A stretch of DNA of 64,000 nucleotides, taken from contig JASAND010020555.1 in assembly GCA_030248195.1 (NCBI GenBank), positions 1 through 64,000 of the forward strand, given 5' to 3'. The translations under genes were made by a program, and so were the position numbers. Each line of letters opens with the position of its first letter. Position 1 is the stretch's first letter. Below are positions 9,691 to 30,900 of the stretch, piece after piece. This DNA is from Trissonchulus latispiculum. Taxonomy: Eukaryota; Nematoda; Enoplea; Enoplida; Ironidae. The notes under the pieces are model-generated. The model made no database searches. It saw only the letters and a program-made list of their open reading frames with translations, and was not told the DNA's origin.

Positions 9691-10069
9691 ATAAAAGTGA
9701 CTTTACCTTGACATGGGCCATTGATTTGAAAAATTGGGATTTGTTGACATATCGAAGCAAAAGGCCGGTGCGCCGAAGGCGCAAAATTTTAGGTGCTGTA
9801 GAAAGGCTCTGTAGCTCAACACTTTTATAAAGCAATCCATTAAAGTTTGCTTCTGAGTATCAGAAACTGAACCTTTGTCGTCTTTAGACGAGTTTAGAAA
9901 TATTGTTGGAAAAATATAATTGGAACAAATATTTAAAACTGCATAAAAACCAAACACTAACTCTCCTCCTAGCATTAAATTGTGATGAAGGTTTTGAATT
10001 TTGAATAAATATAATAATGAAAAGCTTTGAAAAAATTAATCTGGTAAGAAACATTCGTCCTGTTGTAAA

Positions 10070-10440
10070 AACAGTGTTGGCCCCCGCGCAGGGATGTGTT
10101 GTTCTGCGAGAGGGTTCCAACAGTGTTGACCCCCGCGCAGGGATGCATTGTTCTGCGAGAGGGTTCCAACAGTGTTGACCCCCGCGCAGGGATGCATTGT
10201 TCTGCGCGATGGTTCCAACAGTGTTGACCCTCCGCAGGCACGGGTTGCTCTGCGCAGAGGGTTCCAACACTGTTGACCCCCGCGCAGGGATGCATTGTTC
10301 CGCGCGATGGTTCCAACAGTGTTGACCCTCCGCAGGCACGGGTTGCTCTGCGCAGAGGGTTCCAACACTGTTGACCCCCGCGCAGCGACGCTTTGTTCTT
10401 CGCGAGGGTTCTAACAGTGCTGACCCCCGCGCAGGGATCT
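10070..10440. repeat. 49-bp minisatellite, about eight units
   Basis: The unit contains GGTTCCAACAGTGTTGAC, then CCCGCGCAGGGATGCATTG, then TTCTGCGCGA. The GGTTCC/GGTTCT landmarks fall at 10113, 10162, 10211, 10260, 10309, 10358 and 10407, an exact 49-bp period. Two unit subtypes alternate: one with CCCCGCGCAGGGATG, one with CCTCCGCAGGCACGG. Because 49 is not a multiple of three, the overlapping minus-strand frames are repeat artefacts. A CGCGGGGGTCAAAAA motif at the right edge also occurs near 8090. Confidence 0.85.
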
Positions 10441-11127
10441 TCTGCGCAGAGCTTCGCGCTGTGCGGGGGTCAAAAAGTTTGCTGCGCACTGCGCGGGGGT
10501 CTCGGATTCTGGCCTATACATGTATAGGCCCAGTACAGGCATTGCGCATGTGTGTACTGGAACATTTCTAAGAGTGTAACACCAAGATTTTGCCCAAAGA
10601 TGGCTTGCCAACCAAGACTTAACCTATCCAATGTTTTGTCAAGATGGCTTCATCCATGCAAAAATTACGCAGGAAACCCCGGTAGTGGTACTACCTCCTT
10701 AAATATAGAATAATGATGAACTCTTGATGGTACTTAACAATGTTATGTTATTCCGAACTTCGATCTGGTTCATACTATGTGTATTATAAGCGTGACACAT
10801 CCTCTCACGGATGACCCCCCACTGCTGCAAATTGGGTCCTGCTGAATCAAAAACTCATTGGTATGCGCCTTTTCTAAAGCATCCTAAAATTCGTGCACGT
10901 ACTGCGTGTGTTTTCGAGCTGTAATTACACACAAGCAAAGAGCGTAGTGAGCGTATCCCTGGCCCTGATTCAGTTGAGTACAAATTTACTGGGGTCACTT
11001 TGGTATAATTTGTGCGAAGAGGGGTAAGCCGTTGTCGTGCAAGGATGGGCCTCGCTTTTAATTCGCAGAGTATAACACATTTGTACTCTTACGTAGTCTT
11101 GATAAATATAGTAATGTGCACGTCACC

Positions 11128-15022: not shown

Positions 15023-15687
15023 AGAAGCAATCGAACACCAGCTAGAGTTCAAACAGCCAAGCTGCCGTTGCTAATAAGGGCATCGCAAGAATAAAGTTTG
15101 TTTCACAAACATCAAACGTACAGGAAACGGATATATTCTTGCTGAAAATATCGATTTGCTTTCTATAGTAGGGCCAGTAGAACAACAAATCCACACTTAT
15201 TTGGCATTGAATAGTGTATTGAAGTCTATTTGGATAGTAGGTAACCGGCATGCAGTTTTTCTCAGCATATATGTCCTAAACGAAAACGTTTGCGAAATGA
15301 AGTCAGAAAAACTAAATAAAAGCAAGGACATGGTAGTCGGATACCCGATATCCAGCTAAACAAGAAAACAAGTAGGCCCCTAAAAGGAGCATCATCCCGT
15401 CGTAGAATGTGAAAATATGACTACATATTATTTAAGGATTCAACAGCCATAATTGTTTATTATCACTGTTTTACAATAGCTCTTTAAATGGTAGCGACTA
15501 AAATGCGGGTGGGTACCGCAAATTTCTTGGATCGGCTTCATTTTTTGCATGTATATATATGCCACGTGTGTGGTGAAAAATACTTAGTCGTTGGCTCTTA
15601 GTTCGCTCTGAGCTGGCCAGGCACACAAGAACCGGTCCGACCCTCCACTTTTTGTGGCATCCAATATAAACACGCAGAAATTTTCCC
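15023..15687. other. Sequence upstream of a retroelement protease frame
   Basis: No gene is evident. It may include LTR or leader sequence of the retroelement whose frame starts at 15688. A TGGTAGCGAC stretch at 15488 could be a primer-binding site, but I could not pair it with LTR borders. Confidence 0.3.
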
Positions 15688-16710
15688 TTGGTGTTTGGTT
15701 CAACGAAAACATCTGCTTTGGCACAACATGAGACGGCATATTCGATAACATTTGGAAATTTTTGGCTGTCGTATAGAAAATTTAATACTGGTGCGATCCC
15801 GAAAGATGAAATTTTGTGTAAAATGGCTTATTTATTGCAACGTTTATGTCCAAATCAGTCGGAATTCGACTCAGTCTTGCTTGACAAAGGACAGCCTCCT
15901 CCCTCTTGGACCGCGGGTTTTTCTCCCAATCTCCAGGAGGCGGGTGCCTCTCGTTGCCACAGGCTCGAAAGTAATTCTGCGGGGACAAAAACTGAAGAAG
16001 CTGTCAGTCCAACAGCACTGCAGGAGCCAGAAAAACCCCAAAAGCGAGATCCAACATCTGATGCAGTAACTCCGGGAGGGTCCACCGAAAGTGAATCCGA
16101 GCAAGTACTGGCGGCAACAGACAATATCCCAGCTATACTCGCCACCTCCGGGGGGACCAAAATTTTGGCTATTATTGACTCTGGGGCATCTATATCTATT
16201 ATCAGCCCCCGGACAGTTAAGAGAATTTTGAAAGGGGGCGCCAATGTCAAATTTCATAAACCGGACCCCATCACCGCAGTGACGTCTAGCGACGCGCCGT
16301 TAAAAATTTCTGCCAAAGTTTTCGTAATCTTCACGGTGGGGTGTAAAGAATATGAGTGGTCTTTTCATATGGTTCCTGATTTTTCTCGTGAGATGCTCAT
16401 AGGAACCGATTTCATGAAAAGTTTTCATTGGGATTTGTTATTTTCTACAAATGAGGTGAACATGCAAGGAATACACCACCCATTATTGTCATCAGCAGAA
16501 ATTTTCTCGGAATTTGTTGCAAATTGGTGTAACGACGCGCCTGTGGTGATGTACGTAGATGTGGGGATACTCTCGTCCACAGAGGTTCGGGCTTTGCCCC
16601 ATACCCTCCATGCTGTCCGGGGGCCGAGGTGCCTTCCTCCGGTACAGTTTCTTTCCAACAAATTTTCTCGTGATTTGCCATTGGTGGTTAATATACATAA
16701 TGGGAAATAG
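15688..16710 (+). pseudogene. Ty3/gypsy-like protease fragment (gag tail-pro)
   Basis: A 340-codon frame contains a retropepsin domain at about residues 145-245. The catalytic motif IIDSGAS (Asp164) is intact and is followed by the expected flap/ILGxDF-type signature, here MLIGTDFM. The upstream part is a Pro/Ser/Glu-rich linker of the kind found at the Gag-Pol boundary. The downstream part resembles the start of the protease-RT spacer, then the frame stops. No reverse transcriptase, RNase H or integrase follows. A purine-rich stretch near 16801-16811 may be the polypurine tract, which would make this an internally deleted element. It is on the opposite strand to the related gag-env-pro element at 17.6-21.4 kb. 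Confidence 0.7.
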
Positions 16711-17597: not shown

Positions 17598-18110
17598 GCT
17601 GGTCGGTTCAAGGTAAAATTTTCAATCAAATTGAAGGTGAAAATTTGCATGAAAATCCAACAGTTGAACCCAATGGGGGGAATACCTGGCAGCCCCGAAG
17701 AGCTTTTGTTTGGGTCAATAAGGGCGGAAACCTCATAACCGTTTGCTGATTCCAACCAACCTAGACGGGTATTACGGTAGATTCGAACTGGTGCATTTGT
17801 GATGTTGACTGCCCTAATGGGAATCGAATCTCCTAGATGGACTCGAGTCAGGGCTCTGGCAGTGCGAAACTTAAAACGGCTATGGCTGTCCAAGTTAGGT
17901 TCGAATAAAAGATCCTGTCCTTGAGCTTATTTGCTCAGATTCGCAGGCAACTTGCACATAACACAGATTTCGGAACGAGGAGGGATTAACCCGGACGAGG
18001 ATGCTTTAATTTCTACCGGCGTGAAATTATGTCCTGCTACAGCTGCAGATACCGATTCTCCACCAATTGAAATCTGCTCACTTACTGGATCTACTAACAG
18101 ACTTCCGGCT
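17598..18110 (-). pseudogene. Protease end and protease-RT spacer, frame-broken
   Basis: Downstream of the gag-env-pro frame (18094-20748) the same element continues in a shifted frame. It encodes the end of the retropepsin fold, then an IPPRSE-type spacer motif, an in-frame stop at 17927-17929, and the V-G-S-IP...NAPVRIYR spacer signature. So there is a frameshift near 18110 and a nonsense codon at 17927. The frame is lost before any reverse transcriptase, and the next sequence belongs to another fragment. Confidence 0.6.
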
Positions 18111-20748
18111 TTGAAAGAAAATCCATGCCTAATGCACCACTCGTGGGGACCTTATCAGCAACATAAGTTGGGTGAGTGACTACTTTCGAACCAATCAGGA
18201 AGGGGACGTGCAAAAGTCCATCCAATTCTAGAGTATGGCCGGTTGCTGAATCAATCCGAGGCACTTCCTGTGGCCTGAGTTTGAGGTACTCCTCATCGTC
18301 TAGCAACTTACGTCTCAATGGAGACGAAATCATAGTGATGCTGGCTCCAGGATTGACAAGGGCTGGGAGATGCATATCCCGTATACAAATCCAGATCACT
18401 AGGGCCGAAAACGGGTCTAACGAAAACAATACCGGACGCTGACCTTCAAAGCCGGACGAAGGCGGAGACGGTCTTCTACTTCTGGAAAACAAACCGCTAC
18501 TACGACGTCGATTTTCGGTCGGAGAATCTGAATCCGACCTTTTTCTCCCACGAGCCACCATTTCTATTGACTCAGCATTTGGTCGGTATCTGACTGAAGG
18601 CGAACTTCTCTGTGATTGTCTGTTGCAGCGCTGGCAACAATAACAGAGAAGTAAAGAAATCAGTACTTTGAGAACAATAGCTACTACAACATACAATCCG
18701 AGGAAGGAAATTCTGAAATCCCTCCCAAAAATGGGATATAAGCCGGCATGATTAGCAACTTCTTGAATGAGTTTTTGCCTTTGCGCTAACTCTAACGAGG
18801 TAAAATCTATTGCAAAAGGTGTAATGACCTGTGGCCAGTGAGGTCTCTTTTGAAAAACTTTTACACGTACCTGTTGTACTGCTTTTAAACTGTTATAGTA
18901 AACGTAAGAGGCAACTGTTAAGAGTGTGTAGTCTGCATGTGAAAACCAGAGTCCACCGTGGCTGGGTACGCTGATCCTGTTACCTACATTTTGATGTGCT
19001 ATGGTAGATGATCGTGTAACTAGTACTTGAGATTCGTTCGTACGAATGAGTACTCCAGCTGTGGTAGACTGTATTTGAGTACTCCTACTGGGTGTCGCTA
19101 AACGGTGTCGAGGTTCCCAATATTTTTCGCTAGTGTGTGGACGATTATATAGTGCACTGATGCAACTTTGTTCCTGGGACCATGCTAGCGGTATGGAATG
19201 TGGATGACACAACCACAGCCCTGGATGGCTGATACAGTGTTCCTTACTGATTGGGAGAACCAAATGGTTATAGCTATTATCAGCTACAGGGATGTTCCCT
19301 AGCATAATGAGATCCGGTAGATCTAAACTGTATTGGAGTTTATTTGTCTTGTTGTGCCACCCTACGTTGTGAACTTTAAAAACTGGTTTCACATCTTCTT
19401 CAATTATTATCGGAATTTCGAGCAAAAATGAAAATAATAGTCGATGAATTTCCAACTTTACTGGGTATGTTTTCGCGAATTGGTACAACAAGGCGGGTTC
19501 TTGGTAGAAAAGTGTACCCTGCAAGTTAATATTATCTCTCAAAAGTCGTTTTAGGGTGGTTACATCAATTAGGTCTGGGGCTAATCGTCCTTCTTTAGTG
19601 GCTAGCATAGCACCGTCAACCATTCTAGTAATGGTTTCCTTCATTGCTAGACCACTAACCATTGCATCGACTTCTTGCACGATCTCGTTTTGGGCGCATG
19701 CGAGTTGATTGATTTTGTCTTGTATTTGCTTAAAGGAATGGTGAGTAAAAATGTATAGTTGCTCATTTGCTGATGTCTGTCTATTCAGTGTCCGATCGCG
19801 GAGGTTTGCATCAGTTTTCATTAGCATCATAGCATCTTGTAAAGCATCGAGTTTTGAACCAACTTTACCTAAGTAGATGCTATTTGCTACACCTAAACCA
19901 GTTCCCGTCAAACCAAGAACTCCAGCTATCAAAGCACCCAAAAAACGCGTCTCTCGTTTTGGTGAATTTTTTTGGTTTGGTGCAACCGATGGTACGGGCG
20001 GCTCAGTTTCAGCGCAAAATCTCTCTGCCTGTTTGCAGACTTGGTTCAACAGTTTTGCGTAGAAATCTGTGTTTAAAACGCCCTCGTAGGCAATGGCTAG
20101 CTCAGAAATCACTGCTTGTAGCCGTCTGTGCAGACTGTGCCGACCAGTACAATTGCCATTAGTCTGCTTCGTCCCTGTCCCCAACCATTCGACGTAGTCA
20201 TCATAGTCTTTTTCTATCTGTGGTAGTTCAGCATGGATGACTATGGGGGGATACTCCACGTTACGTGGAGTGAGAGCTAATCCAGCGGGTTCTATAGCAA
20301 CTCCGTAAGCGGTGTGTACTTGTGTAGTAAATTTACCTAGTTCCCCGGCTAGCGACCCACGAGTAGTCGGCAACAAACAAAATACAATCAGTGGCAGAAA
20401 TAGGGCAGCCTGTAAAAATGAAGCTGCACGCACGCGAGCCCTAATCGGCCAGGGAGCCATCCTCAACTGCGGACCAGCGTGTCCAATGTTTACAGCAAGT
20501 GGTGCTTCCCACTGTGTCTCTGCATTATTCAGTGACACTTGAGTGTTAGTGCTTCGCTCCTCTAGAGTTTTGTTATGCTGAGCTAGTCGGTATAATCCCG
20601 AAGTTCTACTTACACTAGCAGCATGAACGGTAGGGAATAAAGCTTTGACAGAAGTTTCTCTACCTTCGCCTTCTTCGTCTTCTCTGTCTTCCTCATTCTC
20701 AGCTTCGCTTGAGCTATGAACAAAGGTGTGGGGCTCAGTTCGATTCAT
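18094..20748 (-). CDS. Env-Pro fusion frame of a Ty3/gypsy-like retroelement (Gag-Env-Pro order)
   Basis: An 884-codon frame without stops. Residues 1-107 are a hydrophilic, acidic leader. 108-128 is a hydrophobic signal segment. 129-268 has several Cys. RETR at 265-268 is a furin-type site, followed by a Gly/Ala/Leu-rich fusion-peptide-like segment (269-292) and a long helical region. 680-702 is a C-terminal membrane span followed by CCQRC. After an Arg/Ser-rich linker (730-770), a retropepsin-like domain occupies about 790-880. Its active site reads NPGAS (799-803) where DSGAS is expected, so the catalytic Asp is replaced. The architecture is that of class I fusion glycoproteins acquired by errantivirus-like elements. 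The frame is also open upstream to 21006, through a CCHC zinc knuckle (20812-20853), so Gag NC, Env and Pro share one frame. This is an old genomic copy, with breaks downstream and no reverse transcriptase. Confidence 0.75.
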   Translation of the reverse strand: MNRTEPHTFVHSSSEAENEEDREDEEGEGRETSVKALFPTVHAASVSRTSGLYRLAQHNKTLEERSTNTQVSLNNAETQWEAPLAVNIGHAGPQLRMAPWPIRARVRAASFLQAALFLPLIVFCLLPTTRGSLAGELGKFTTQVHTAYGVAIEPAGLALTPRNVEYPPIVIHAELPQIEKDYDDYVEWLGTGTKQTNGNCTGRHSLHRRLQAVISELAIAYEGVLNTDFYAKLLNQVCKQAERFCAETEPPVPSVAPNQKNSPKRETRFLGALIAGVLGLTGTGLGVANSIYLGKVGSKLDALQDAMMLMKTDANLRDRTLNRQTSANEQLYIFTHHSFKQIQDKINQLACAQNEIVQEVDAMVSGLAMKETITRMVDGAMLATKEGRLAPDLIDVTTLKRLLRDNINLQGTLFYQEPALLYQFAKTYPVKLEIHRLLFSFLLEIPIIIEEDVKPVFKVHNVGWHNKTNKLQYSLDLPDLIMLGNIPVADNSYNHLVLPISKEHCISHPGLWLCHPHSIPLAWSQEQSCISALYNRPHTSEKYWEPRHRLATPSRSTQIQSTTAGVLIRTNESQVLVTRSSTIAHQNVGNRISVPSHGGLWFSHADYTLLTVASYVYYNSLKAVQQVRVKVFQKRPHWPQVITPFAIDFTSLELAQRQKLIQEVANHAGLYPIFGRDFRISFLGLYVVVAIVLKVLISLLLCYCCQRCNRQSQRSSPSVRYRPNAESIEMVARGRKRSDSDSPTENRRRSSGLFSRSRRPSPPSSGFEGQRPVLFSLDPFSALVIWICIRDMHLPALVNPGASITMISSPLRRKLLDDEEYLKLRPQEVPRIDSATGHTLELDGLLHVPFLIGSKVVTHPTYVADKVPTSGALGMDFLSKPEVC

Positions 20749-20753
20749 ATAGT

Positions 20754-21392
20754 TTAGGCTGCGACGTTTCGGTTCATTCCGAGGAAAACGCTGCGTCGAC
20801 TGAACTTGAGGACAACTTGCCTTTGTATGACCGGCTTGGCCACATTGCCAACATTCAATCCCTTTGAACTGAGTGCGGCGTTGAAAGTTTGAGAATGGTG
20901 GTTGTCCTCGAAATCCATTGTACTGCTCAGTCGGTCTATTGTAATTTCCGCTTTGTCTGTTCGCATTTGAATTTTGTTGGGCGCTGTCTGTATCTGTTGA
21001 GTCAGATTATTTATTTGGGTTTGCAAATTCGATACCTCCTTTTTGAGAGCTGTTGTTTCAGAACTGCTTTTATCGTCCCTAACTGCACTGTACAGTTCTC
21101 TATTTGGGCGGTTTCCCAATTGTTGTCGCTGTTGGTACTGTTGTCTGTTATTGTGATGACGAGACACACCGAACCTATTATTTCGGTAATGCCGACCTGA
21201 TTGTCGTTCGAAATGACGGTTGGAATGGTCTCTTGGAGGTGGCCGATTCACTACTTCATCAACCACGGTGCGTCTCCATACATGAGATGCTGATGTGCTT
21301 CCTGTTCTACGGCCGGTAAGTAAGGTCCAAGCCTGTACGCTTTTAACAGAGTAGATAGCCAGAGTGCTAGGTAAGGTCAATCCAGTCAACAA
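20754..21392 (-). pseudogene. Gag C-terminal region with frame switch before the zinc knuckle
   Basis: The 212-codon frame encodes an Arg/His/Asn/Gln-rich basic segment, then a coiled-coil-like stretch (about residues 105-135), typical of retrotransposon Gag. From roughly 20960-21006 the protein-like sequence moves to another frame (bases 21006 downward), which carries an Asn/Gln-rich linker and a CCHC knuckle with spacing C-x2-C-x4-H-x4-C (20853-20812). That second frame continues into the Env-Pro frame. The rest of this frame, to 20754, is a shadow. The switch could be a mutation or a programmed frameshift. The capsid N-terminal half and a 5' LTR were not found. Confidence 0.55.
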
Positions 21393-27900: not shown

Positions 27901-30900
27901 TGCATGAAAAACCATGTTTTCCTTAATGAAAAATGTATGTGAAATAATCCAATTTTTTGAATTCAATAAGTTTTAGGTCGCATATATTTAATTTAATTTC
28001 TTGAATTAGGGATTGCAGCTGAACCTACCAGCTTACATATCACAATTCTTGTGAGCAAGACATTTTATTTTAGTGGAATTGGAGTTGTCATTTACGCTAA
28101 ATTATTCGCTTTCAACACATGAAGTTAAGCGCTGTCAAGAACAAAAACATTTCATTTATTTCGAAATTTCAAGTAATGTATTCGTGAGTTGTTATTGAGT
28201 GGTGATTGGAAATGACAAAGAAGTTTGCAGCGTTTGTTTCTCAAAGAAAAATTGTGTATACTCAAAATTTCACAGAAGCTAATCGACTCGGGAACAGTAC
28301 TTGTTGGTTTAGAGCTCACTCAATCCTTTTCAAGTACAGAGTTGTGTTTCAGATGCCTTTCTTTATGGTACCAATTTTTTGCTACTTTCAAGTGCTAATA
28401 CTGCGTGTTGGCCACAACGCTTGCTCATAGGGACAGCTCAAAGGAAGAGAAGCCAAACATTTCATGTGTGTGGGTGTTTTGACTGTGCACTGTTGTTTAT
28501 ACATTCTCAGATTGGCTAAATTATTAAATTCATGGGTGCCCGATACCGGTCTGAGACTGAGTGGTGCAATTTATACTGATGATTGACTTTATAATCAGAA
28601 AAAACATTAATCGGATATTTAAATAGATAGCCTACTGGAAGACGTCAATGTATAAAAGTATCTATTCAGTAAGCAATTTTTCACTAGGCGCTCGGATGGA
28701 TAACTAAATGCGGACATTTAAGCTCTTTTTACAAAAACCACACCACTTACCCGATGTTGCTGATACAACGGTTTGCGTGAAGCCTCCTAACATGATTTGC
28801 ATACCTCCCGGCCCGAACGATTTCTTAGAAAAGGAACAACAATCAGTGATGTTCGTTTTTTCTAGCAAGCAATACTTAACGAAATCTTCACAACTGTATG
28901 CAATATGATCAATTAAGTCTGTTATTGTATGATTCCTTTCCTGTAGCAGTTGGTGTAGCTTGTTCGCTGCATTTAATATGTTGTCTGGACTAAAGTCGAC
29001 ATTCGTGATGTAAGGAAAACTGTAGGGAGCAGGAAACATAGCGCCTAACAAAGTAGCTATATCAGAAAATTCAGATACCAATGGGTTGGTAGAATGCTTC
29101 AAGTATGCAATCAGCTTCTCTCTGTTGTACCTATAAACATGATGGAAAAACAGTGAAGAGATTTCGTCTATAGCTCTTAATCAAAACAGAATGCAGGAAC
29201 GCGAATGTGTTTATGTGCGAAACTACCTGCAATCAGAGCATTCTAGCCAACTACGAAATAATAGGTCGACAGTTAAAGAATTATCGAGCGTATTTAGTAG
29301 AAATAAAAAATTGAAATCAAGAAAAATGTATAAAGAGTACATAAGTACTAGAAGTAATAACTAAGCATATACAGTTACCAGAGTAATTTAAATTTACCAT
29401 TATCAAACAACCAAAACTGAACACGACCCGAAAATTAGCAAAGAATTCACACCTGAATCCTCCACAACCATGATACCATCACTGTCAAAAGTCCCACAAT
29501 AGTACTGAGTAATGCGAGCCCAAATTTGTTTGACAATAATGAGGTATTGGATAAGTGAAACCAAAGTCCATACACGAACGTAGAATTCAGTTTAAACGGT
29601 TGTTAGAATTTTAAGACAGTTTCAAACGAATTTGAATAAAATTCAAAAAATATTTCTGAAGGATATTGTAACATTCATACTATAAATCGCTGCCTATTTC
29701 ACATGAGTTCTGAACCTATACTGTGAAAATACAGTAACAATTCTACTAAAGGTACTTGGCAAAAGTAGTTACTGTAATGAAGGTACTCTATGCATTAGGA
29801 TTTATGCAATTGTGTTAAAAATATTAGAGATACCAAATGATTAAAATAGCAAGCTAAAAATATAATGGGTATCGCTAAATATAGTTGAACAGTTATTCAC
29901 GTTAAAGTTTTTAAAGAAAGGCAATCGCTGATCAGCATTAATTTTGTTGTTTTACAGTTTACTTGTCAAAATTAAGATTTTCTAAACATCGAACACATTT
30001 ATGATTCAGGATTCCAAAAATAGAGGGAGCAGGCTTTGGCCATCACTGTAACGGAGAGTAAAGGCTATCATAATTGTTTGCTTTTTCATTTTGAACTCTG
30101 AAGCCTCGTTCGACTCCTAAATATTCAGTTTTTGAGCGTCTTAGCTTCTTCTCAAGGTAGTGAATTGCAGGAAATCCTTGCAATCTGTACTTTGCCCCTG
30201 TTTATTTAAAGATTAAACAATAGTCCACGATTGAAGGAAACAGTGATTAAAAGTTTTACCAACCAACTCTGAATGGGCTTAATCCGCTGCTGGGCGAGTT
30301 GAAAACTCGTTATAAAATTCATTAAGTTCATTTAAATAAAACATCGATTAAGCAAATTGACTTCAAATTAGCCCGTTGACTTTTTTCTGATTAAGAGTAT
30401 ATAATAGCAAGAGTTGGAAGCTTGGAACCTAGCAGAAATGGCTTGCGAGATGCTCAACACATTACGACGGAAATTTCGGGGGAGGGGGAAGTACCGCTTA
30501 CCGTTGTTCAGCATGTGTTTATATGCGTTTGAACTAAAACGCATCTGATTGGCTAATTCCCTACCTTGAGTCAAATTTATGCGTATAGGGGACCCTCTCC
30601 CCCGAGTTCTCTGGGGGGGGGGGGTCCCGCTTAGCGTTGTTAAGTGTGTGTTTATATGCGCTTGAACTGAAATGCACTGATGAGCATTACGGTAGCTAAG
30701 TAGCCAGTCAAATGCATTTCAGTTCAAGCGCATATAAACACACGCTTAACAATGCTAAGCGGGACTCCCCCCGAGATCTCGGGAGGTACCCTTATACACG
30801 TAAATTTGACATAAGGTAGGGAATTAGCCAATCATATGCGTTTTAGTTCAAACACATGCTGAACAACGGTAAGCGGAACCCCCATCCTCCACACACGAGA

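What the first reader, a model, noticed from the sequence alone, without database searches (positions are those of the whole stretch)
18094..21006. Gag-Env-Pro order in one uninterrupted frame
The minus-strand frame open from 21006 to 18094 contains, in order, a CCHC zinc knuckle (20853-20812), a full envelope glycoprotein (signal segment, furin-type site, fusion-peptide-like segment, C-terminal membrane anchor), an Arg/Ser linker and a retropepsin-like domain. In LTR retroelements and retroviruses I know, Env lies 3' of pol and is expressed separately. Here the two cytosolic parts flank a membrane protein, so a translated product would have Gag NC and Pro on the same side of the membrane. If intact relatives exist, this is a new way to organise or express Env.
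Basis: partly seen in the sequence, partly recalled or inferred. Interest (0 to 1): 0.88.

Follow-up and report, generated by a model that had tools for sequence, protein, structure and literature searches.

The report
Retroelement with envelope inside Gag-Pol
The window holds a decayed copy of a retrovirus-like mobile element whose stop-free relatives carry an envelope-like gene inside the Gag-Pol reading frame, between nucleocapsid and protease, so the element likely makes core, envelope and enzymes as one membrane-threaded chain rather than making the envelope separately.

Summary
The window copy (21314-17690, minus) is a truncated fossil. The same genome holds 14 other stop-free NC-Env-protease copies of this family; eight lie in single ORFs of 2374-2404 aa. 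Read piece by piece, one such copy runs CA-NC-Env-PR-RT-RNaseH-IN, with a second ORF 3' of IN. Env is under purifying selection as strong as that on pol (dN/dS 0.05-0.06). One young copy has LTRs 99.8% identical and a 4-bp target repeat. More divergent families share the order: all 30 contigs with a PR-RT match in an ORF of at least 2000 aa have an Env match just upstream. There are two kinds of Env: a class I, paramyxovirus-F-like type (12; assignment weak) and a Monjiviricetes (class III) type (18). Sixteen further contigs with shorter ORFs stay unresolved and could be Env-free. Two other protein records carry the class III Env upstream of a protease-like region in one frame. The canonical 3' env slot carries NADAR plus SGNH, or a Tribbles-like pseudokinase. 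Likely mechanism, untested: one polyprotein with an internal signal and stop-transfer anchor, leaving Gag and Pro-Pol cytosolic. Main rival: splicing; two acceptor-like sites are conserved at the Env-PR junction.

The parts
17690..21314 (-). truncated, decayed copy of the retroelement (gag C-terminal third to just past PR)
   Evidence: blastn/tblastn with pieces of other copies: matches end at 21314 and 17690; RT core, IN and 3' ORF pieces have no tblastn match in the window at E 1e-3, and no flank piece with LTR matches next to the copy
20967..21314 (-). remnant of Gag C-terminal part, frame breaks near 21260 and 20975
   Evidence: tblastn with gag of the C10745 copy: three pieces in different frames, the longest 82% identical over 99 residues
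18094..21006 (-). open frame, 970 codons, NC-Env-PR
   Evidence: full-length relatives
20812..20853 (-). CCHC zinc knuckle (nucleocapsid)
   Evidence: pattern match CX2CX4HX4C; Pfam zf-CCHC E 0.013; PDB Gag polyprotein chain 2ec7_A E 0.0055
20362..20427 (-). predicted Env signal segment, basic residues before it
   Evidence: hydropathy 2.3 over 19 aa; charge +4 before, +1 after
19888..19956 (-). RXXR cleavage-type site (RETR) and fusion-peptide-like segment
   Evidence: hydropathy 1.82; REKR/RERR in relatives
18634..18690 (-). C-terminal membrane anchor of Env, basic tail after it
   Evidence: hydropathy 2.75; charge +5 after
18457..18549 (-). Arg/Ser-rich linker between Env tail and PR
   Evidence: alignment of 17 copies
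18109..18405 (-). retropepsin-like domain, catalytic motif NPG here instead of DTG
   Evidence: Asp_protease_2 E 0.051 here, 36.5 bits in L011; motif
17690..18132 (-). remnant from the end of PR onward, out of frame past 18094, ending before the RT core
   Evidence: blastn 95% to the C12559 copy; tblastn covers residues 5-148 of the PR-RT piece

Best explanation
This is a decayed copy of an LTR retroelement family whose stop-free copies encode CA, NC, an envelope-like glycoprotein, PR, RT, RNase H and IN in that order in one reading frame, which is likely translated as a single polyprotein that threads the membrane twice. The predicted steps are as follows. The internal signal segment would open translocation at the end of Gag, so Gag stays cytosolic. 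The Env ectodomain would enter the ER lumen, and its C-terminal anchor would stop transfer and put PR-RT-IN back in the cytosol. Signal peptidase and a furin-type protease would cut on the lumenal side and PR on the cytosolic side. This would release Gag, a cleaved Env and Pol, much as flaviviruses make capsid-envelope-protease-polymerase from one chain (analogy recalled). The Env slot holds either of two apparently unrelated fusion-protein types in sister families, which suggests that it is a swappable cassette. Shown: order, frame, conservation, two Env types, LTRs, 3' accessory ORFs. Inferred: topology, cleavage, expression, infectivity.
For: Eight copies with NC-Env-PR inside ORFs of 2374-2404 aa; of 16 other copies that cover at least 941 of the 970 residues, 14 are stop-free. 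Pieces of copy C18461: Ty3_capsid E 3.1e-6 (just under its cut-off), PR, RVT_1 E 1.5e-34, RNase H E 1.4e-37, H2C2 E 2.1e-19, rve E 8.3e-11. Env dN/dS 0.051-0.061 in five unsaturated comparisons and 0.024 in the one unsaturated class III pair. LTR pair 99.8% over 480 bp with TSD ATTA in C19522. 30 of 30 contigs with PR-RT in an ORF of at least 2000 aa have an Env match 346-505 nt upstream. Monjiviricetes Env above the Pfam cut-off in L051-L054. A signal segment precedes Env in 10 of 10 pieces and an anchor above threshold follows it in 9 of 10 (not L056). Charges fit N-in/C-in in the five F-like pieces. P0004 and P0005, from other NCBI contigs, have Env followed by a PR-like region.
Against: There are no RNA or protein data. 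Equal amounts of Gag, Env and Pol from one chain are unlike retroviruses. Two acceptor-like sites conserved at the Env-PR junction point to splicing instead or as well. Charge flanks of the class III families do not show a clear inside-positive pattern, and L056 has no anchor above the hydropathy threshold. The F-like assignment of this Env is weak (Pfam Fusion_gly E 0.0047, PDB E 0.3), and both structure models failed (pLDDT 31 and 32.5). Sixteen more-distant contigs with PR-RT in ORFs of 1016-1812 aa have no Env match in the limited searches. The PR-like region of P0004 lacks a DTG or DSG motif (read by eye).
Confidence: 0.6

Rival explanations
1. The Env segment is an alternatively spliced block. 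The unspliced RNA is the genome and the Gag-Env source, and a spliced message using an acceptor at the Env-PR junction makes Pol (or Gag-Pro-Pol) without Env, as foamy viruses splice Pol (recalled) and Cer1 splices CERV from an uninterrupted gag-pol frame.
For: Two polypyrimidine-AG sites are conserved in four subfamilies exactly at the Env-PR junction, both in the same phase; two or more there occurred in 1 of 1000 synonymous shuffles, one or more in 69 of 1000. Cer1 precedent (passages of PMC10309623).
Against: The junction window was chosen after seeing the sites. Only weak donor-like GT sites are conserved: five inside Env (6-7 of 9 consensus positions) and one in gag (6 of 9); in nine leaders the best score is 7 of 9, at no place shared across subfamilies, and one leader has none. 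Splicing alone does not explain why the unspliced frame is kept open through Env.
Confidence: 0.28
2. Env is translated on its own from an internal start or a subgenomic message (for instance at the Met of MNRTEP, conserved in all aligned window-family copies), and the continuous frame is incidental.
For: The Met of MNRTEP, over 100 residues before the signal, is present in all 17 aligned copies; contexts.
Against: In the subfamily C copy checked no Met lies just before the signal. The class III and C3133 pieces do not share this Met. Continuity to PR is kept although a separate Env would need a stop.
Confidence: 0.09
3. One-off insertion, chimeric assembly or unrelated fossil pieces side by side.
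For: The window copy itself is truncated and decayed.
Against: Sixty matches in the genome, the window's own included; 14 other stop-free near-full-length copies on separate contigs, purifying selection, sister families with the same order.
Confidence: 0.01

Closest known systems
Metaviridae (Ty3/gypsy) retroelements with env, e.g. Errantivirus
   Same: CA-NC, PR-RT-RNase H-IN order, LTRs with TG..CA ends, 4-bp TSD, env-type fusion protein
   Different: Env lies between NC and PR in the same frame, not 3' of pol as a separate ORF (canonical order recalled, and stated in passages of PMC5408684 and PMC10309623)
TelKA and Vesta elements of bdelloid rotifers (PMC5408684, passages read)
   Same: paramyxovirus-F-like Env in one lineage, GDSL/SGNH ORF in another
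   Different: there the Env or GDSL protein is ORF3 downstream of pol; here Env is inside the polyprotein frame and SGNH/NADAR is the 3' ORF
Anakin BEL/Pao elements of mosquitoes with chuvirus glycoprotein (PMC7642597, passages read)
   Same: Jingchuvirales-type glycoprotein captured by an LTR retroelement
   Different: BEL/Pao rather than Ty3-like; the paper describes the envelope-like proteins of Roo, Tas and Cer-7 as downstream of the polyprotein
Cer1 of C. elegans (PMC10309623, passages read)
   Same: one uninterrupted gag-pol frame, extra protein made partly from that frame
   Different: CERV is a spliced nuclear export factor, not a fusion glycoprotein, and its C-terminal half lies 3' of pol
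Flavivirus polyprotein (recalled)
   Same: capsid, envelope, protease, polymerase order in one chain with internal signal and anchor segments
   Different: positive-strand RNA virus, unrelated proteins; comparison of strategy only

Membership tests
Metaviridae (Ty3/gypsy) | Pol order PR-RT-RNase H-IN | tested here: met
   (C18461 copy, pieces)
Metaviridae (Ty3/gypsy) | Ty3-type capsid | tested here: inconclusive
   PF19259 E 3.1e-6, 27.2 bits against a cut-off of 29.1
Metaviridae (Ty3/gypsy) | LTR pair, TG..CA ends, 4-6 bp TSD | tested here: met
   LTR pairs found in 3 of 8 same-copy flank pairs compared (three of the other five have a 3' flank cut by the contig end); TSD ATTA in C19522; none seen in C2173; C18461 has an inverted extra LTR next to its 5' LTR
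Metaviridae (Ty3/gypsy) | RT phylogenetic position among LTR clades | not tested
   no reference RT set was used; only a weak PR tree was made
Errantivirus-type or retrovirus-type env element | env is a separate ORF 3' of pol | tested here: not met
   Env between NC and PR in one frame; the 3' ORFs read are NADAR-SGNH, SGNH or Tribbles-like
Class I paramyxovirus-F-like fusion protein (window-family Env) | RXXR site, fusion peptide, anchor, sequence homology to F | tested here: inconclusive
   features present; PF00523 E 0.0047 in L010, 15.7 bits against a cut-off of 29.8; PDB F0 entries are top hits but at E 0.3; models failed
Monjiviricetes fusion glycoprotein, class III by recall (sister families) | match to PF24664 above its cut-off | tested here: met
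   L051, L052, L053, L054 above 27 bits; L056 below, 18.6 bits; weak matches to herpesvirus gB as well
Tribbles pseudokinase (3' ORF of C8813 family) | closest to Tribbles among solved kinases | tested here: met
   TRIB1/TRIB2 E 2e-40 to 9e-40, next STK40 5.3e-20

The most novel reading that the evidence does not exclude
A clade of retroelements uses a flavivirus-style gene order, capsid-envelope-protease-polymerase threaded through the ER membrane as one polyprotein. Its internal Env slot is a cassette swapped between unrelated class I and class III viral fusion proteins, and the vacated 3' env position carries captured effector genes (Tribbles-like pseudokinase, NADAR domain, SGNH esterase-type domain).
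Probability: 0.5. Interest if true: 0.92.

Novelty: new variant of a known kind. Interest (0 to 1): 0.86.

Why it matters
Env placement 3' of pol and separate expression is treated as a near-universal rule of retroelement organisation. A lineage that fuses Env between Gag and protease would have solved Gag, Env and Pol sorting and dosage in another way. It would make the question of how an intracellular retroelement becomes enveloped testable in one host with two Env types in the same slot. It also means that pipelines that look for env only downstream of pol will miss such elements, and that the 3' ORF can carry captured signalling-type genes instead.

Tried and rejected
Protein search with the F-like Env alone and with a longer piece found nothing at the thresholds; 7999 and 7984 candidates were scored. 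Viral contigs gave no confirmed relative of either Env type. Two structure predictions of the F-like Env had pLDDT 31 and 32.5 and were not used for a fold search. A tree of ten PR pieces had no well-supported branch, so direction and number of Env swaps stay open. A 2A-type skip motif was considered by eye and not conserved. Host naming failed: no tRNA, Rfam or Pfam match in the window helped, and a mitochondrial gene search did not complete. NADAR with retrotransposon gave no relevant paper among the 15 titles shown of 104. For precedents of Env between gag and pol I ran and saw none in the titles and abstract starts shown; some lists were capped (15 of 26, 10 of 73). The library is open-licence PMC only, so this is not proof of absence. 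Of the Troyka paper (PMC12440569) I saw the abstract and passages, and of PMC11952523 passages.

A test for Env-free relatives (position of NC relative to PR) was asked five times and never answered, and a family search with PF24664 three times. So 16 contigs with ORFs of 1016-1812 aa stay unresolved.
Full report
The observation. The minus-strand frame from 21006 to 18097 (stop 18096-18094) is open for 970 codons. It holds a CCHC knuckle, a signal-like segment, an RXXR site with a hydrophobic segment behind it, a membrane anchor, an Arg/Ser linker and a retropepsin-like domain, in that order. The copy itself is a fossil. Matches to other copies end abruptly at 21314 and 17690, the gag remnant has frame breaks near 21260 and 20975, RT-core, integrase and 3' ORF pieces found no match in the window and no LTR was found next to the copy, and the protease motif reads NPG where all 16 other copies aligned read DTG.

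Stop-free relatives. A search with the 970-residue piece gave 60 matches, the window's own included, a lower bound. Of 16 other copies that cover at least 941 of the 970 residues, 14 are free of stops and two have one stop each. Eight of them lie in ORFs of 2374-2404 aa. Read in pieces, the C18461 copy gives Ty3_capsid (E 3.1e-6, just under the curated cut-off), the NC-Env-PR piece, reverse transcriptase, RNase H, integrase zinc-binding and core domains, and then a separate 3' ORF. LTR pairs were found in 3 of 8 same-copy flank comparisons. In three of the other five the 3' flank was cut by the contig end, and the remaining two showed none. The C19522 copy has LTRs 99.8% identical over 480 bp and a 4-bp repeat ATTA at both ends, so it is young. 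C2173 has LTRs 92% identical and no repeat that I could see; C18461 has LTRs 100% identical over 521 bp but an extra inverted LTR beside the 5' one. The stretch after the 5' LTR resembles a tRNA-Leu primer site; this is from memory and was not tested.

Selection. Nei-Gojobori dN/dS for Env is 0.051-0.061 in the five comparisons between stop-free subfamilies that were not saturated (A-B, A-A2, C-C2, D-A, D-B). Pol in A-B, A-A2 and C-C2 is 0.041-0.133, and the NC-linker is 0.13-0.32. The remaining comparisons were saturated at synonymous sites in Env. The window copy against its nearest subfamily is relaxed: Env 0.110, PR 0.159. Env in the frame is therefore a selected protein.

A wider clade with two Env types. 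A PR-RT piece found 88 matches, including families only 42-47% identical with ORFs of up to 2640 aa, and one of 2824 aa. Six were read upstream of PR. All six have an envelope-like segment between the Gag end and PR in one frame. C3133 has an Env about 36% identical to the window family's. Four others (C8813, C10583, C1536, C3364) match the Monjiviricetes fusion glycoprotein above its Pfam cut-off; that this is a class III fusion protein is recalled. C19664 matches below the cut-off, and has a NADAR domain (E 3.7e-28) upstream of Env in the same frame; its Env is about 40-43% identical to those of the other class III families that matched over their full length, apart from its own close relatives. 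Position tables were then compared. Of 30 contigs with a PR-RT match in an ORF of at least 2000 aa, 28 have an Env match 346-505 nt upstream on the same strand, and the other two, C19664 and C10901, have one 484 and 481 nt upstream. That makes 12 F-like and 18 class III. Two of the 30 (C2211, C3302) carry breaks. Across, Env matches without stops lie in ORFs of at least 2000 aa on 15 contigs (F-like) and 42 contigs (class III); whether PR follows was checked only for the 30. The count gave 43, and I dropped C18350 because one of its matches has a stop. Class III Env in the one unsaturated pair has dN/dS 0.024.

Against the reading. Of the 88 PR-RT match rows, 36 showed no Env in the tables; three of these rows (C10901, C19664 twice) were later resolved. 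Many of the rest are fragments, but 16 contigs outside the window family have ORFs of 1016-1812 aa (for example C5228 and C15055) and could be Env-free. Five of the 16 start within 2.2 kb of the contig's first base, so an Env could be cut off there. The genome searches score only their best candidates, so absence there is not informative, and the search that would settle it did not complete.

Other records. Two protein records on other NCBI contigs, P0004 (organism not given) and P0005 (labelled a bacterial MAG), match the class III Env at 41% and 35% identity. P0004 runs on in frame into a PR-like region that aligns to ours, though without a DTG or DSG motif by eye. P0005 ends in a DSG protease-like motif, which aligns only weakly (E 0.008). 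I think that P0005 is stray eukaryotic DNA. That they come from other species is likely, not shown.

What Env is. The window-family Env has the layout of a class I fusion protein. The best named matches are paramyxovirus and pneumovirus F proteins, in the right order of features but not significant (Pfam E 0.0047, PDB E 0.3). I hold F-like as likely, not shown. Two structure models failed.

The 3' ORF. Where env normally sits, the window family and C3133 carry NADAR plus an SGNH/GDSL domain; in C3133 they are in different, overlapping frames. C19664 has an SGNH/GDSL match there. The C8813 family carries a Tribbles-like pseudokinase (E 2e-40 to TRIB1). A Tribbles-like match lies 2259-2345 nt downstream of PR-RT in 8 of the 30 long-ORF contigs.

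How it likely works. Ten pieces were scanned for hydrophobic segments: all have a signal before the Env ectodomain and nine have an anchor after it (not L056, where I placed one by hand); C3133 has an added hydrophobic stretch before PR. In the five F-like pieces the charges fit Gag and PR both in the cytosol; in the class III pieces they are not decisive. I therefore favour one membrane-threaded polyprotein, cut by signal peptidase, a furin-type protease and PR. The main rival is splicing. A scan for polypyrimidine-AG sites conserved in four subfamilies found only two in about 965 codons, both at the Env-PR junction. In 1000 synonymous shuffles two or more at that junction came up once, one or more 69 times. 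The window for this test was set after seeing the sites, and only weak donor-like sites are conserved. Both routes could operate together. No expression data were available.

Novelty. Searches of an open-licence library listed no report of an Env between Gag and protease among the titles and abstract starts shown. The nearest precedents place Env or GDSL ORFs 3' of pol (PMC5408684, passages), describe a chuvirus glycoprotein in BEL/Pao elements (PMC7642597, passages), or a spliced non-Env protein drawn from an uninterrupted frame (PMC10309623, passages).

Noticed in passing
L057:827-1936 (C8813:68026-69135) and 8 of 30 long-ORF contigs: Tribbles-like pseudokinase ORF at the 3' end of class III-Env elements; more distant kinase matches also lie in ORFs of 2162-2934 aa elsewhere.
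   Followed up: partly
L056 residues 70-219; L038:3525-4661; L058:1153-1638: NADAR domain recurs in these elements, once inside the polyprotein between the Gag end and Env, otherwise in the 3' ORF with an SGNH/GDSL domain.
   Followed up: partly
NC-Env-PR alignment columns 324-351 (Env, before the RXXR site): Patch of unusually conserved synonymous codons across four subfamilies (12 of 15 codons; 95% of permutation maxima at or below 9). Possible cis-element or recombination patch.
   Followed up: partly
L055, residues 916-949: Extra hydrophobic hairpin-like stretch between Env anchor and PR in the C3133 family.
   Followed up: no
C10073:64050-65858 and C13365:36411-38222: F-like Env in ORFs of 3395 and 3131 aa, far longer than the other families; extra domains unknown.
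   Followed up: no
P0005: A record labelled Pseudomonadota MAG carries this eukaryote-type retroelement protein; likely contamination of the bin.
   Followed up: no
window 15670-16710 (+): Another open frame of 346 codons with a gag-asp_proteas match (E 0.00023), apparently from a different Ty3-like family.
   Followed up: no
window 10060-10451: Tandem units of 49/98 nt, G+C-rich.
   Followed up: no
window 30484-30857: Cluster of nested inverted repeats, up to 95-97% complementary.
   Followed up: no
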